Below, piece after piece: positions 1,123 through 48,047 of a DNA stretch of 64,000 bases; positions within the stretch are counted from its first letter, which is position 1; the number at the start of each line of letters is the position of its first letter. A model generated the notes under the pieces. It saw only the letters and a program-made list of their open reading frames with translations. It had not been told where the DNA came from and ran no database searches. A program made the translations under genes and the position numbers. Origin of the DNA: Acidobacteriaceae bacterium (GTDB lineage: Bacteria; Acidobacteriota; Terriglobia; Terriglobales; Acidobacteriaceae); contig DASZBM010000010.1 of assembly GCA_035944135.1 (NCBI GenBank), forward strand, positions 186,001 through 250,000, given 5' to 3'.

Positions 1123-1872
1123 ATGCGCGCTCTCGTCGTCTCCGACATCCACGGCAACCTCCAGGCTCTCCAGGCCGTGCTCGCCGCGGCCGGTTCATTC
1201 GACGAGCTCTGGAATCTCGGCGACACCGTTGGCTACGGCGCCAATCCCAACGAGGTCATCGACACCATCCGCCCGCTCGCGCGCATCAACGTGCGCGGCA
1301 ATCACGATCGCGTCTGCTGCGGCCTCACCAGCTCGCAAGGCTTCAACCCCATCGCCGCCGAAGCCGCCGCCTGGACCCACCGTAATCTCACGCCCGCAAA
1401 TCTCGCGTGGCTGCGCGCCATGCCGCAGGGCCCCGTCCTCGCCTCGGAGCGCGCGCTCTGCGCCCACGGATCTCCGCTCAACGAAGACCACTACATCATC
1501 TCCATGCGCGACGCCTGGTCGCCTCTGCAGCGAATGTCTACCGAGATCACCTTCTTCGGCCACACCCACGTGCAGGGAGCCTTCTCGCAACACGCTCCCG
1601 AGTGGCAGGAGATTCGCCCCATCTACAACACGCAGAGCGAACCGGAGCAGTTCTCGATCGACGTTCCCGTGGGCTCACGTCACCTCATCAACCCAGGCTC
1701 CGTCGGCCAGCCTCGCGACGCCGACTGGCGCGCCGGCTTCGCCATCTACGACACCGCCGCCGATCGCGTCACCTTCTTCCGCATCCCCTACGACGTCGCC
1801 GGCGCGCAACAAGCCATCCGCAACGCGCACCTGCCGGAACGCCTCGCCTCCCGTCTCAGGGCGGGCAGGTAG
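1123..1872 (+). CDS. Metallophosphoesterase family protein (calcineurin-like, YfcE type)
   Basis: Soluble two-metal phosphoesterase of 249 aa. The metal-binding motifs are in order: D-x-H in VVSDIHGN near residue 8, GD in LWNLGDTVGYGANP, GNHD in VRGNHDRVC, and a C-terminal GHTH in FFGHTHVQGAF followed by NPGSVGQPRD. This order matches the family closely. The substrate is not predictable; relatives act on phosphodiesters or dinucleotides. It is codirectional with the ABC ATPase and may be cotranscribed. Its TAG stop lies at the edge of a heptad repeat (AGTGAAT family). Confidence 0.93.
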   Translation: MRALVVSDIHGNLQALQAVLAAAGSFDELWNLGDTVGYGANPNEVIDTIRPLARINVRGNHDRVCCGLTSSQGFNPIAAEAAAWTHRNLTPANLAWLRAMPQGPVLASERALCAHGSPLNEDHYIISMRDAWSPLQRMSTEITFFGHTHVQGAFSQHAPEWQEIRPIYNTQSEPEQFSIDVPVGSRHLINPGSVGQPRDADWRAGFAIYDTAADRVTFFRIPYDVAGAQQAIRNAHLPERLASRLRAGR

Positions 1873-2071
1873 TGAATAGTGAGTAGCGAATAAAAGAAGC
1901 ACTACATCGCCGCTGTTGCTTTTGCCGTTGCCTTTCTTTCTGTCATCCCCGAAGGGGATCTGCTGTTGCCGTTGCCTTTGCTGTTGCCTTAACTCGCAAC
2001 TCGAAACTCGCATCTCGAAACTGATCGCAAACGCGCTTTTGTTTTATTCACTATTCACTATTCACTATTCA
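1871..2071. repeat. Composite intergenic repeat: heptads, hexads and a GAA-loop hairpin
   Basis: The gap between the metallophosphoesterase and the DHFR-like gene is almost wholly repetitive. In order: AGTGAAT-type heptads (1871-1890), a TTGCYK hexad tract, a hairpin ATCCCC-GAA-GGGGAT (1945-1959) preceded by TTTCTTTCTGTC, more hexads, an AACTCGA-type heptad tract (1991-2023), and CTATTCA heptads (2044-2071). The outer heptads are inverse complements of each other, so the gap as a whole has inverted ends. The central hairpin element recurs near 32050 and 56300. Confidence 0.75.
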
Positions 2072-2107
2072 CCCCCTTGGAACCCCACCCGGCCGTACCT
2101 TTCCCTC

Positions 2108-2683
2108 ATGCGCCCCCTTCGCTATTCCATCAACGTCACCCTGGACGGCTGCTGCGATCATCGTGCAGCGTCCCCGGACGAAGACTTATTTCGCAACGCG
2201 ATCGCGAACATCGAGCAGGCCGATGCTCTCCTCTTTGGCCGGGTAACCTACAAAATGATGGAGACAGCTTGGCGGCCGCCGGCGGAGACCGGAGTGAAGC
2301 CTGACTGGCTGAAACTCGCGCTCGGCCTCGACTTCGCCCGGACAATCCACGCGAAAAAGAAATACGTTGTCTCGAGCACCCTGGACCGCGTCGATTGGAA
2401 CGCGGAGTTCCTGCGCGGCAATCTGGAGCAGGCCGTTCAGCAGCTCAAGCAGCAGCCGGGCAAGACGATCTTCACAGGAGGCGTCAAACTCCCGTTTGCG
2501 TTGGCGGAGCTCGGGCTGATCGATGAGTACGAGTTCGTGGTGCACCCCAGGGTAGTGGGCCACGGACCAACGTTGTTCGCGGGCCTGTCGAAGCCTCTCG
2601 ACCTGACGCTCGTCAGCCGGCTGGAGTTCGGCTCGGGAGCAGTGGCGATGCGCTATGTGCCGAGAGAAGTGAATAATGAATAG
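2108..2683 (+). CDS. Dihydrofolate reductase family protein (RibD C-terminal-like)
   Basis: Cytosolic reductase-like protein of 191 aa from ATG 2108. It opens with MRPLRYSINVTLDGCCDH, the usual start of this family, then LLFGRVTYKMM and TIFTGGVKLPFALAELGLIDEY. These match the NADPH-binding fold of bifunctional RibD and its stand-alone DHFR-like relatives. The reaction is unknown; many relatives are uncharacterised. The last four codons (VNNE) and the stop are made of heptad repeat (GTGAATA, ATGAATA, GCGAATA), so the C-terminus was apparently set by the repeat. Inverted heptad arms lie on both sides of the gene. The reading frame stays open upstream to about 1916 through repeat sequence, but homology begins at 2108. 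Confidence 0.88.
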   Translation: MRPLRYSINVTLDGCCDHRAASPDEDLFRNAIANIEQADALLFGRVTYKMMETAWRPPAETGVKPDWLKLALGLDFARTIHAKKKYVVSSTLDRVDWNAEFLRGNLEQAVQQLKQQPGKTIFTGGVKLPFALAELGLIDEYEFVVHPRVVGHGPTLFAGLSKPLDLTLVSRLEFGSGAVAMRYVPREVNNE

Positions 2684-2869
2684 CGAATAAAGCAAAAGCG
2701 TGCGCCAACTGCCTTTGCCTTTCTTCACTATTCACTATTCACTACTCACTATTCACTGCCTCGGAAATAGCGAATAAAGCAAAAGCGTGCGCCAACTGCC
2801 TCTTGCCTTTCTTCACTATTCACTACTCACTATTCACTACTCACTATTCACTACTCAGCATTCACTGCC
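2669..2869. repeat. Tandemly duplicated heptad-containing repeat module
   Basis: A module starting AATAGCGAATAAAGCAAAAG and running into GCGTGCGCCAACTGCC, then TTTGCC and TTCACTA heptads, occurs twice in a row (about 2679-2761 and 2766-2869). The first 35 bp are identical in the two copies; the copies differ mainly in the number of TTCACTA/CTCACTA units. It starts inside the 3' end of the DHFR-like gene and ends at the stop codon of the convergent patatin gene. Confidence 0.8.
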
Positions 2870-6656: not shown

Positions 6657-6684
6657 AGTGAATAGTGAAAAGTGAATAGTGAAG
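6657..6684 (-). repeat. Heptad repeat, TTCACTA family, between M48 and HIT genes
   Basis: On the plus strand the units are AGTGAAT, AGTGAAA, AGTGAAT, AGTGAAG. They fill most of the 42-bp gap between the stop of the M48 gene and the start of the HIT gene. On the transcribed strand they read as TTCACTA-type units ending four bases before the HIT start codon. The unit matches the tracts near 2050 and 2740. Confidence 0.75.
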
Positions 6685-27405: not shown

Positions 27406-27500
27406 AGAGATCAGAGAACAGAAATCAGAGATTGTCCGTCGTCAGCGCGCTGCGAACTCGGCGTACACTTCTGTTCTCTGATTTCTGATCCCTGGTCTCT
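27406..27500. repeat. Inverted pair of GATCAGA/GATCTCT heptad tracts
   Basis: The left arm (27406-27433) is built of GATCAGA, GAACAGA and AATCAGA units. The right arm (27469-27500) is its inverse complement family: TTCTGTTCTCTGATTTCTGA and on. The 35 bp between them are unique. In RNA the arms would form a long stem between purA and the small monooxygenase gene, and the right arm ends 10 bp before that gene's ATG. The same heptad family is found twice inside rnr. Confidence 0.8.
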
Positions 27501-41708: not shown

Positions 41709-44411
41709 CTACCGCCGCCTCTTCTTCGAAGTGGACTTCTCGCGCGTCGGCTTCCGCGGCCCGCTCCCCGCCACCGGCTCCGTCCCCGGAAGCAGCGCAA
41801 ACTGCAGCCGCATCTGCTGACGATCGACCCGGTCCAGGATCACCTCGACCCGCTCGCCCACCCTGAAGCAGTGCCCCGTCCGCGCCCCGCAGATCGTCCT
41901 GTCCGTTTCCCGAAACGTATAGTAGTCCCCCGCCAGCGACGCGATCGGCACCAGCCCCTCGATGAACAGCTCATCGAGCTCCACAAAAAATCCATACTTT
42001 GTAACCGAGAGGATGATGGCCTTGAAGTCATCGCCGACCTTGTCAGCCATGAACCGCATCTTCTTCCACTCCATCAGCTCCCGCTCCGCGTCCGCCGCCC
42101 TGCGCTCCGCCTGCGAGCTCTCCACCGCAATATCACTTAATTCCTGTGCCCCAATCGGCCCATCACTTTCGCTTGCCTTGCCCGATCTCTGATCTCTGTT
42201 CTCTGATCTCTCCAACTTCCATGGCTGGGGATCATCACTCCTGATCGCTCCTCCGCGCGGATCGGCGCCGTTGCGCAGCATTGCACGCAGCAGCCGATGC
42301 ACGATCAGATCCGGATAGCGCCGAATCGGCGAGGTGAAGTGCGTGTAGCAGGGACTCGCCAGCGCGAAGTGCCCCTCGTTCTGCTCCGCGTATCTCGCCT
42401 GCTTCAGCGATCGCAGCATCAGGTACGCGAGGATCCGCTCCTCAGGATGCCCACTGATCCGCCGCACCAGCCGCTGATACATCTGCGGAGTCACCGGAAT
42501 GCTCTCGGGAATCTCATGTTTCTGCACATCGCGCGCGCCTCGCCCGCGCGCCGAAGACCGTAGAGACGCCCTGCGGTCCGCCTTCATCGTCATGCGTTTC
42601 ACCGGCAGTGAGCCTATGCCCAGCGTCTGCCCGAAGCTCGCCGCGGTCTCTTCGAACTCGACGATCCGTTTCGGGTCTGGCATCTCGTGGATGCGATAGA
42701 TGGAGGCAATGCCCTGATCGCGCAGCCACGTCGCCACACACTCGTTCGCGCTAAGCATGAACTCTTCTATGAGTCTGTGCGCCCAGCCGCGCTCCGAACG
42801 CACAATCGCCTTCATGTTTCCGTCGGGATCGAACTCCACGACTGGCTCGGGAAGGTCGAAGTCGATGGAGCCACGCCGCTGCCGCTTCGCATTCAGGCGC
42901 AGCGCGAGTTCCAGCATCGCGTCGAACGCGTCAGGCATCTCCGGTTGCCCGGCTGCAACGCGCTCGCGCTCGGCGAAGTCCTCCGCGCTCGGTTCGGGCG
43001 TGACATTCGATCTCTGATCTCTGTTCTCTGATCTCCGCGGAGAGGCATTCAGGCAGTGCTGCACGCTTGTATAGGTGCAACGGCGAGCGCTGCGGATGAT
43101 GCCTTCACACACGCGATACGCGACGATTTCGCCGCGCGGATCAATCTCCATCACGCAGCTCTGCACCAGCCGATCTTCGTTGGGCAGCAGCGAGCACATG
43201 CCGCTCGAGAGCGCATGCGGAAGCATCGGAACCGCTCGATCAGGAAAGTAGACGCTCGTTCCGCGCACGCGTGCCTCTGTATCAATCGCCGTCGCGGGCT
43301 GGACGTACCAGCTCACATCGGCGATATGTACCTGCAGCTCGGTGTTGCCGTTCGCCAGCGGCCGCACCAGCACAGCGTCGTCGAAGTCGCGCGCCGTCTC
43401 GCCGTCGATGGTGACGACCGGCAATCCACGGAAGTCCTCGCGACGAGCAAGCTCATCCTCCTCGAGGCTCGCGACCGTCTCCTTCGAGCGCTCGTGCGCC
43501 TCCGCGATCACCTTTGTGGGAAAGGTGTGAGGCAGATGGTGCTTGCGGATGACAATCTCCACGTCGACCCCGAACGCGTCCGGTGGACCGAGCACCTCGA
43601 TGATGCGTCCCCGCGCCGGACGTCCTTGCGCAGGGAACTGCGTCAGCTCGACATCGACGGCGAGACCTTCGAGCGGCCAGCGAGGATCTTTAGGTTCCCA
43701 CTGCGCGCGCTGGGCCCGAGCCTCTTCGCCGAGCATGCGGTGTTCGGAGTTGATAGCGGCGGCGACTTCCTCGGCCCCTTCCGGAATCTCGATCCAGCCG
43801 GCGACACGCTCGTCGAACGGCCGCACGAAGTTGCCGCGCGGTTCATTCAGCCCGAAGTCGCGTGTATCGCGCGTGCTGCGTCTTCGCACCTGATTGCGGG
43901 CGTAGTGGAAGATTCCGACGACCGTCGGATTGCGGCGCGTCAGCACGCGCATGATGCGGCCGGAGCGTCGTCCGTCGCGCCCCGGCGGTGCCTCATCCAC
44001 CAGGACCAGGTCACCCTGCATGGCCCCGCTGATCTCGTTGGGCGGGATGAATAGGTCTTCGCCTTGCTCGGGACGGACGAAACCAAACCCGTCCCGATGC
44101 AGGTCGAGCCGGCCGCTCACCAGGCGTTCACGGCCGGAACGTGGAGCGGCCCCTTCCGCGCCTTTATCGGTTGAGGTGGTAGCCCTTGCCGGCCGCACGG
44201 CCTCCGGAACGGCCCAGGACTCACCGTCCACCCGCGCGAGGTCCCCGCGGGCCACCAGCCGGGTCAACTGTTCCAAAAGGAGACGCCGTTCGCGGCCTCC
44301 GCCTAAGCCAAGCTCCCGAATGAGCTGCTTGTAGCCGGCTCGGCCGTTGGCGGAACGGCGCACACGCGCAATCAGTTCCCGGTCCGTCCGGCTGTAGGGG
44401 CCTGCACTCAT
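41709..44411 (-). CDS. rnr: Ribonuclease R (RNB-domain 3'-5' exoribonuclease)
   Basis: Processive 3'-5' RNA exonuclease of 900 aa. Order: N-terminal winged-helix part (GYKQLIRELGLGGGRERRLL), a cold-shock-type OB domain (LHRDGFGFVRPEQGEDLFIP), the RNB core with catalytic Asp residues in VVTIDGETARDFDDAVLV, then YTHFTSPIRRYPDLIVHRLL, and an S1 domain near the C-terminus (FKAIILSVTKYGFFVELDEL), ending in a basic tail. Two loops of the RNB part are longer than usual and each contains ENRDQRS, encoded by identical 28-bp heptad tracts (42183-42210 and 43008-43035). Both keep the frame. No second gene is linked to it. Confidence 0.95.
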   Translation of the reverse strand: MSAGPYSRTDRELIARVRRSANGRAGYKQLIRELGLGGGRERRLLLEQLTRLVARGDLARVDGESWAVPEAVRPARATTSTDKGAEGAAPRSGRERLVSGRLDLHRDGFGFVRPEQGEDLFIPPNEISGAMQGDLVLVDEAPPGRDGRRSGRIMRVLTRRNPTVVGIFHYARNQVRRRSTRDTRDFGLNEPRGNFVRPFDERVAGWIEIPEGAEEVAAAINSEHRMLGEEARAQRAQWEPKDPRWPLEGLAVDVELTQFPAQGRPARGRIIEVLGPPDAFGVDVEIVIRKHHLPHTFPTKVIAEAHERSKETVASLEEDELARREDFRGLPVVTIDGETARDFDDAVLVRPLANGNTELQVHIADVSWYVQPATAIDTEARVRGTSVYFPDRAVPMLPHALSSGMCSLLPNEDRLVQSCVMEIDPRGEIVAYRVCEGIIRSARRCTYTSVQHCLNASPRRSENRDQRSNVTPEPSAEDFAERERVAAGQPEMPDAFDAMLELALRLNAKRQRRGSIDFDLPEPVVEFDPDGNMKAIVRSERGWAHRLIEEFMLSANECVATWLRDQGIASIYRIHEMPDPKRIVEFEETAASFGQTLGIGSLPVKRMTMKADRRASLRSSARGRGARDVQKHEIPESIPVTPQMYQRLVRRISGHPEERILAYLMLRSLKQARYAEQNEGHFALASPCYTHFTSPIRRYPDLIVHRLLRAMLRNGADPRGGAIRSDDPQPWKLERSENRDQRSGKASESDGPIGAQELSDIAVESSQAERRAADAERELMEWKKMRFMADKVGDDFKAIILSVTKYGFFVELDELFIEGLVPIASLAGDYYTFRETDRTICGARTGHCFRVGERVEVILDRVDRQQMRLQFALLPGTEPVAGSGPRKPTREKSTSKKRRR
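42183..42210 (-). repeat. Heptad repeat tract inside rnr, copy 1
   Basis: Four 7-bp units of GATCTCT/GTTCTCT, identical over 28 bp to the tract at 43008-43035 and related to the arms at 27406-27500. On the coding strand it encodes part of ERSENRDQRSGKASE, in a loop after the FTSPIRRYPD motif. The family normally has a shorter loop here. Confidence 0.85.
43008..43035 (-). repeat. Heptad repeat tract inside rnr, copy 2
   Basis: Identical in 28 bp to the tract at 42183-42210 and read in the same frame (RRSENRDQRSNVTPE). It lies in a loop between the CTYTSVQHCL strand and the helix that carries LRLNAKRQRRGSIDFD. The loop is about 30 residues longer than expected from E. coli RNase R. Confidence 0.85.
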
Positions 44412-47651: not shown

Positions 47652-48047
47652 CTATGCAGCGCGTTTGAGGACGAAGGGAGCGGCACTGACTTCGTCCTCA
47701 TCGTCTTCCTCGTCCTCCTCCTCATCGTCGTCGTCGAACTCGTCTTCGTCTTCCTCGTCGTCTTCGTCTTCGTCTTCGTCTTCGAGGTCTACGTCAACGT
47801 CGTCCTCGTCATCATCTTCGTCGTCTTCTTCGAACTCGTCTTCGTCCTCGTCTTCGAGTTCATCGTCGGACTCCTCCTCGTCGTCAGTGTCGCGCATGAC
47901 GGCGAGGTTTTCGCTAGAGGCGTTCGCGGATGGATTGCTGTCGGCGAACTTCGGATCATCTTCGAAGTCGGCGGTGGCATCATCGTGCACCAGGTTGCGA
48001 AGGTCTCGGGCGCTGTCGGTTGCGGGCATAGGATTCTTGTCAGGCAT
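47652..48047 (-). CDS. Extremely acidic low-complexity protein, 131 aa
   Basis: The N-terminal 45 residues are ordinary (MPDKNPMPATDSARDLRNLV); from about residue 53 nearly every residue is Asp or Glu over some 65 positions. It closes with a short basic end (FVLKRAA). No signal peptide. A GGAG lies 11 bases before ATG 48047. Both complementary frames stay open because of the triplet repeat, but only this frame has a ribosome-binding site and an acceptable protein. Such tails bind cations or basic proteins, or mimic DNA; nothing specific can be claimed. It is upstream of the DUF1440 gene on the same strand. Confidence 0.6.
   Translation of the reverse strand: MPDKNPMPATDSARDLRNLVHDDATADFEDDPKFADSNPSANASSENLAVMRDTDDEEESDDELEDEDEDEFEEDDEDDDEDDVDVDLEDEDEDEDDEEDEDEFDDDDEEEDEEDDEDEVSAAPFVLKRAA

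What the first reader, a model, noticed from the sequence alone, without database searches (positions are those of the whole stretch)
42183..43035. Identical 28-bp heptad repeats inside the rnr reading frame
Two tracts of four 7-bp GATCTCT/GTTCTCT units are identical over 28 bp (42183-42210 and 43008-43035) and are read in the same frame as ENRDQRS. Both are in loops of the RNB domain that are long compared with E. coli RNase R. The same heptad family forms the intergenic arms at 27406-27500. This suggests that the repeat spreads, is tolerated in coding loops, and keeps or was selected for frame.
Basis: partly seen in the sequence, partly recalled or inferred. Interest (0 to 1): 0.75.

Follow-up and report, generated by a model that had tools for sequence, protein, structure and literature searches.

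The report
Dispersed seven-base repeats in RNase R loops
Two identical 28-base tracts inside a soil bacterium's RNase R gene are copies of a seven-base repeat scattered between its genes; they sit in variable protein loops that related species fill with their own, different seven-base repeats.

Summary
Confirmed: the 28-mer is identical at 42183-42210 and 43008-43035 and encodes RSENRDQRS twice in a 900-aa rnr. Its 27-bp core occurs exactly nowhere else in the 4.43-Mb genome, but 27 arrays of the family exist: 21 between called genes, 6 inside four conserved genes. None of 23 same-genus RNase R proteins readable at each site has ENRDQRS: lineage-specific occupants of variable loops, not ancient sequence.

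"Keeps frame" is largely trivial: AGAGATC repeats encode one cyclic heptapeptide in all three frames; the other strand has TGA in every frame. All 7 arrays called inside genes are in the open orientation.

Beyond the finding: these loops in other species carry period-7 arrays of different units (11 of 109; most other lags 0-2; control segments 0 of 115), matching each genome's own dispersed units (permutation p about 1e-5). Intergenic arrays are polar: the AGAGATC 5' end lies within 12 nt of a called gene boundary in 42 of 62, the 3' end in 2.

Clean insertion edges are not shown; the spreading mechanism is unknown. New variant of a known kind.

The parts
41709..44411 (-). rnr (RNase R), 900 aa, host gene of both tracts
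   Evidence: ORF; Pfam RNB, CSD2, OB_RNB, S1
42183..42210 (-). 28-bp tract (four 7-bp units), loop between RNB and S1, codes RSENRDQRS (ENRDQRS at 737-743)
   Evidence: array 42184-42211
43008..43035 (-). identical 28-bp tract, loop inside RNB, codes RSENRDQRS (ENRDQRS at 462-468)
   Evidence: array 43009-43036
27406..27433 (+). intergenic arm of the same family, AGAGATC on the + strand, 5 nt after the stop codon of the upstream gene
27466..27500 (-). second, inverted arm, ending 10 nt before the start of the next called gene; the two arms form a predicted hairpin

Best explanation
The two tracts are coding-region copies of a genome-specific, dispersed 7-bp tandem repeat family (unit AGAGATC with variants such as AGAGAAC and AGAAATC; commonest length here four units, 28 bp). 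Shown: most arrays lie between genes; six lie inside four conserved genes of this genome (RNase R twice, an AMIN/Amidase_3 protein twice, a double-domain aldehyde dehydrogenase, an ATP-dependent DNA ligase), in loops or linkers that vary across the genus; relatives lack the peptides there; other species carry other heptad units in the same loops, matching their own dispersed families. Follows from the genetic code: the AGAGATC strand is stop-free and gives the same cyclic peptide in every frame, so a landing in that orientation with a net length change divisible by three is survivable, while the other orientation truncates the protein. Inferred: arrays arrive by copying from other arrays (recombination or template switching between repeats, or movement of one arm of a hairpin element) into weakly constrained loops, and the peptide needs no function. 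The identity of the two rnr copies suggests a recent common source or copying within the gene, but does not prove it.
For: Family dispersed, control 0; 27 arrays, 21 intergenic, 6 in genes; peptides missing from same-genus homologues that cover the sites; 7 of 7 in-gene arrays of three genomes in the stop-free orientation; frame arithmetic; period-7 signal in 11 of 109 loops of other species, 0 of 115 control segments; loop unit matches the genome's own family, also after subtracting hits in the loop gene's locus.
Against: No empty site with unchanged flanks was seen; loop 1 changed length by 1 residue relative to several relatives, so sequence was replaced rather than simply added. The family is patchy: of 24 same-genus relatives only G010 and G024 have it in number (38 and 12 hits; G022 has 1) and neither carries it in rnr. 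Several genomes rich in a unit do not show it in these loops (G024, G041 for AGGGCCC; G002, G022 for AGGRARC). No motor for spreading was looked for.
Confidence: 0.8

Rival explanations
1. The arrays are arms of a mobile hairpin element (MITE- or REP-like, moved by a transposase in trans); the rnr copies are single arms left by insertion. This is the best explanation with a named motor.
For: Many intergenic arrays come as inverted pairs around a short unrelated spacer; the commonest length is four units in G000, G024, the AGTGAAT family of G000 and the AGGGCCC sample of G041; AGTGAAT arrays are followed by a recurring AAGGCAAAGGC-like flank.
Against: The in-gene copies are single direct arrays without a partner arm; AGAGATC arrays have no evident shared flank; target-site duplications and transposases were not examined; in G010 the commonest length is five units (13 of 28).
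Confidence: 0.3
2. Local slippage: each loop expanded a heptad that already existed there, independently of the other arrays.
For: In several genomes the amidase loop array follows GGGAAGC codons that resemble its unit AGGRARC, so a local seed is plausible there.
Against: The loop unit matches the genome's dispersed family (stratified permutation p about 1e-5); in this genome five different loops plus the ligase loop have the same AGAGATC unit; three-unit arrays are rarer than four-unit ones in the sets counted except that both are few in G010, which is not the falling curve expected of slippage.
Confidence: 0.12
3. ENRDQRS is a functional, selected peptide of RNase R that occurs twice.
For: The same peptide occurs twice in one protein.
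Against: Absent from all readable same-genus relatives; the two copies have no synonymous difference; the same DNA lies between genes and in unrelated enzymes; the array residues fall in low-confidence stretches 463-470 and 736-753 of a model that is itself poor (mean pLDDT 59.9).
Confidence: 0.03
4. Ancient protein sequence that happens to resemble the repeat.
For: The loops themselves are old: relatives have loops at both places.
Against: 0 of 23 same-genus proteins at each site have the peptide; identical 28-bp DNA at two codon contexts and 25 further arrays in the genome.
Confidence: 0.02

Closest known systems
Heptanucleotide TAACTGA arrays of marine Beggiatoaceae, some Cyanobacteria and Bacteroidetes (PMC4679880; passages incl. 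abstract, section 9 read)
   Same: Dispersed 7-bp direct repeats, mostly between genes, few units per array; the stop-in-one-orientation and repeated heptapeptide argument is made there; a few arrays lie inside ORFs, 10 of them in the translatable reverse orientation.
   Different: There the arrays sit mostly just upstream of start codons; here mostly just after stop codons. Here several units coexist, they differ between species, and arrays occupy the same conserved-protein loops in several species.
GGGNATC heptad repeats of Xanthomonas and Nostoc (PMC4692102; abstract and passages)
   Same: Preference for four units; [quoted passage not shown]
   Different: That paper ties the four-unit preference to G-quadruplexes. 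AGAGATC cannot form them: 0 of 56 units in G024 hold GG although 14 of 14 arrays there have four units; 5 of 117 units in G000 hold GGG.
Rickettsia palindromic elements in reading frames (RPE; passages of the review PMC2229807)
   Same: A dispersed repeat found between genes and in frame in conserved protein genes, apparently tolerated.
   Different: RPE are 105-146 bp with long stem loops; the coding copies here are 28-35 bp direct arrays without a palindrome, and the unit differs from species to species.
Cyanobacterial short tandemly repeated repetitive sequences (STRR; seen in search listing and mentioned for Calothrix; details recalled)
   Same: Heptanucleotide tandem repeats dispersed in the genome.
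   Different: Not compared by sequence here.

Membership tests
Dispersed heptanucleotide tandem repeats (STRR/SSR) | 7-bp unit in head-to-tail array | tested here: met
   Tandem Repeats Finder finds period 7, 4.0 and 3.9 copies, at 42184-42211 and 43009-43035
Dispersed heptanucleotide tandem repeats (STRR/SSR) | many copies scattered, mostly between genes | tested here: met
   27 arrays in G000, 21 of them intergenic by crude gene calls
Dispersed heptanucleotide tandem repeats (STRR/SSR) | copy number varies between strains | not tested
   No second strain of the species was available
G-quadruplex heptads (GGGNATC type) | G-runs in each unit | tested here: not met
   GGG in 5 of 117 G000 units and 0 of 56 G024 units
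G-quadruplex heptads (GGGNATC type) | four-unit preference | tested here: met
   15 of 27 (G000), 14 of 14 (G024); but 4 of 28 in G010, where five units lead with 13
Rickettsia palindromic element | about 100-150 bp palindrome with terminal inverted repeats | tested here: not met
   In-gene copies are 28-35 bp direct arrays with no inverted partner seen in the 60 bases shown after them
Rickettsia palindromic element | in-frame presence in conserved genes, absent from homologues | tested here: met
   rnr x2, amidase x2, ALDH, ligase
MITE / REP-like element | terminal inverted repeats | tested here: inconclusive
   Many intergenic arrays are inverted pairs, others and all six in-gene copies of G000 are single
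MITE / REP-like element | target-site duplication and a partner transposase | not tested
   No empty site available; no transposase search made

The most novel reading that the evidence does not exclude
A genus-wide heptad system in which the same gene-boundary and protein-loop positions are kept while the unit sequence is replaced species by species (concerted turnover), laid down mostly as four-unit arms with a fixed polarity (purine-rich 5' end against the stop or start codon) by an unknown, active copying mechanism, and leaking in frame into conserved enzymes. The RNase R tracts are one instance.
Probability: 0.3. Interest if true: 0.8.

Novelty: new variant of a known kind. Interest (0 to 1): 0.55.

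Why it matters
It gives a testable picture of how very short non-coding repeats enter conserved proteins: a 7-bp unit with one stop-free strand is frame-agnostic, so only the net length change must be divisible by three. That homologous loops in several species hold different units, each matching the host genome's own dispersed family, makes the open question of how heptanucleotide repeats spread directly testable by comparing strains. The four-unit mode and the stop-codon polarity in units without G-runs argue against G-quadruplexes as the general cause of the same features reported for GGGNATC repeats.

Tried and rejected
Ancient conserved peptide: rejected by the rnr alignments (one search read many loci on the wrong strand and was redone). 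Selection for frame: not needed. 28-bp identity as proof of copying within the gene: weakened, another unlinked pair of arrays shares 27 bp. Stop-codon avoidance as the general cause of the intergenic polarity: doubtful, since AGTGAAT arrays are polar too (29 of 36 intergenic) although their sense strand carries stop codons; but a stop inside such an array can itself end a called gene, and only 13 of the 19 near-stop cases have the stop wholly before the array.

Weak points. Gene calls are mine (codon log-odds trained on 29 long window ORFs, no annotation). disagree for some arrays (L090, L091, L094, the prfA-side array of L100, and L101, L103, L104, L108), because start choices differ; L090 got the wrong neighbour. 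Paired arms were counted as separate votes, so the polarity p values are too small. In G010 one site (contig 19, 949325) was not fetched. Polarity of AGGGCCC in G041 could not be judged: the unit is open on both strands and 16 of 24 arrays fell inside called ORFs, 7 antisense; those 24 come from 18 stretches, a part of 74 hits, and one palindromic array counted on both strands. In one search, 25 locus-loop pairs were not found or too short, among them rnr loop 1 of G017, positive. The loops were chosen because this genome has arrays there, so the 11 of 109 figure without G000 is the fair one. Unit types in loops were assigned by eye. The rnr tree's bootstrap had not quite settled. The AlphaFold model of rnr is poor (mean pLDDT 59.9, 12 sequences) and was not searched.

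Literature: searches listed no paper on acidobacterial heptad repeats inside genes; the library is open-licence only.

Full report
Observation. The two 28-bp tracts are identical, at the stated places, inside an intact 900-aa RNase R ORF on the minus strand (domains). They are arrays of the 7-bp unit GATCTCT (AGAGATC on the coding strand) with one GTTCTCT unit. The exact 27-bp core is found only at these two places in the genome. The family is larger: three degenerate units with up to two mismatches give 56 hits and none for the reversed control, which merge into 27 arrays in the window and the stretches fetched around the other hits. One other pair of arrays, on different contigs, also shares 27 bp exactly, so 2 of 351 pairs do.

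Are they ancient protein sequence? No. 23 same-genus genomes gave an RNase R readable at loop 1 and 23 at loop 2 (one of the latter, L018, is broken there by an undetermined base); none has ENRDQRS. Loop 1 in several relatives has nearly the same length with unrelated residues; loop 2 varies strongly in length. Both loops are longer than in the best-matching solved RNase R chains. In an rnr tree the query groups with G018, G012, G017, G006 and G024 (support 97/91). No relative is close enough to show an empty site.

Where else does the family sit? Six of the 27 arrays lie in genes: rnr twice, an AMIN plus Amidase_3 protein twice, a double aldehyde dehydrogenase once, an ATP-dependent DNA ligase once. 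One more lies in a called ORF of G010. All 7 have AGAGATC on the coding strand. In the same-genus homologues that cover these sites the peptides are missing. The other 62 of 69 arrays of G000, G010 and G024 are between called genes. Of 24 same-genus relatives, only G010 (38 hits), G024 (12) and G022 (1) match this unit at up to one mismatch; 0 of 16 more distant genomes do.

Frame. A 7-bp unit repeated gives the same cyclic peptide in all three frames: RDQRSEI for AGAGATC. The other strand has a TGA in every frame. So agreement of frame between the two rnr tracts is not evidence of selection, and orientation is enforced by the code. The same reasoning is in print for TAACTGA repeats (PMC4679880, section 9 read). 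The six in-gene arrays of this genome begin at codon position 1 (ALDH, ligase, amidase second array) or 2 (both rnr, amidase first array).

Same loops, other units. With codon shuffles as the null, 17 of 115 loops pass p<=0.01 at lag 7, and 11 of 109 without the own genome. Lags 4, 5, 8, 10, 11, 13, 16, 17, 19 and 20 give 0 to 2 each; lag 14, a multiple of 7, gives 16. Segments of equal length from the same genes give 0 of 115 at lag 7 and 0 to 2 at the other lags. The units differ: AGGGCCC-like in G017, G012 and G042; AGGRARC-like in G016, G007, G015, G020, G042 and G010; AACKGAS-like in G001 and G006 (assigned by eye). Whole-genome counts over 28 genomes are higher in the genomes whose loops carry the unit: one-sided rank tests p = 0.012, 0.002 and 0.025, and 0 of 100,000 permutations reach the combined rank sum. 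Subtracting the hits in the loop gene's own locus leaves this unchanged (p = 0.013, 0.002, 0.028; combined again 0 of 100,000). Against: G024 and G041 have many AGGGCCC arrays, and G002 and G022 many AGGRARC arrays, without a positive loop here; G012 has only 5 AGGGCCC hits, 2 of them in the rnr locus.

Other repeats in the same loop. In G002 and G010, rnr loop 2 holds a GATTCCC...GGGAATGACAGAAAG piece in frame; in G007 and G017 a stretch read as LSRPKRSAVERPA or SSRPERSAVERPAV. Their genome copy number was not counted; that they are repeats is a guess. I take the loop to be a general landing place.

Polarity and length. For 62 intergenic arrays the AGAGATC 5' end is nearer to a called gene boundary than the 3' end in 54 and farther in 8; it is within 12 nt of a boundary in 42 (34 stop, 8 start codons), the 3' end in 2; uniform placement in the same gaps would give about 11. 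The AGTGAAT family of this genome shows 29 against 7, and 22 against 4 within 12 nt (caveats in Tried and rejected). The commonest length is four units in G000 (15 of 27), G024 (14 of 14), AGTGAAT (27 of 38) and the AGGGCCC sample of G041 (20 of 24), but five in G010 (13 of 28; four units 4 of 28). A four-unit preference and the same polarity were reported for GGGNATC repeats of Xanthomonas and Nostoc and tied to G-quadruplexes (PMC4692102, passages). Here 0 of 56 units in G024 hold GG, so quadruplexes cannot be the reason.

Mechanism. Shown: dispersed family, lineage-specific presence, stop-free orientation, variable sites, unit matching. Inferred: copying of arrays from other arrays, and survival where the loop is weakly constrained and the net change is a multiple of three. 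Not shown: the motor, any effect on RNase R, clean edges. Loop 1 is one residue longer than in several relatives, so sequence was probably replaced, not just added.

Verdict. Heptad repeats and in-frame repeat capture are known kinds; recurrent occupation of the same loops by species-specific units is the part I did not find in the searches made.

Noticed in passing
window 1871-2866 and 6657-6684; other G000 contigs: A second heptad family, AGTGAAT/TTCACTA: 83 genome hits with up to 3 mismatches, reversed control 0, 38 arrays, 27 of exactly four units, often followed by an AAGGCAAAGGC-like flank.
   Followed up: partly
L020, L014, L003, L016 (rnr loop 2 of G017, G007, G002, G010): Other repeat-looking pieces in frame in the same loop: GATTCCC...GGGAATGACAGAAAG, and a stretch coding SSRPERSAVERPAV-like peptide. 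Copy number not counted.
   Followed up: no
L221 (G001), ALDH linker: An inverted pair of AACTGAG/CAACTGA heptads read in frame (SPQLSVVS...TENGELTTEN) between the two aldehyde dehydrogenase domains.
   Followed up: partly
G041 contig 6:626373-626463 and G024 contig 3:950437-950492: Unusually long, homogeneous heptad arrays (AACTGAG, AGGGCTC), longer than the usual four units; candidates for recent expansion.
   Followed up: no
L090 4028-4062 (G000 contig 2): An ORF appears to run into the array and to end at a TAG formed by an AGAGATT unit.
   Followed up: no
window 1991-2022 and 1093-1121: Further period-7 tracts with other units (AACTCGA, TAACCCC) near the AGTGAAT arrays.
   Followed up: no
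window 47690-47882: Long imperfect TCGTCGTCCTCG-type repeat tract found by Tandem Repeats Finder; not examined.
   Followed up: no
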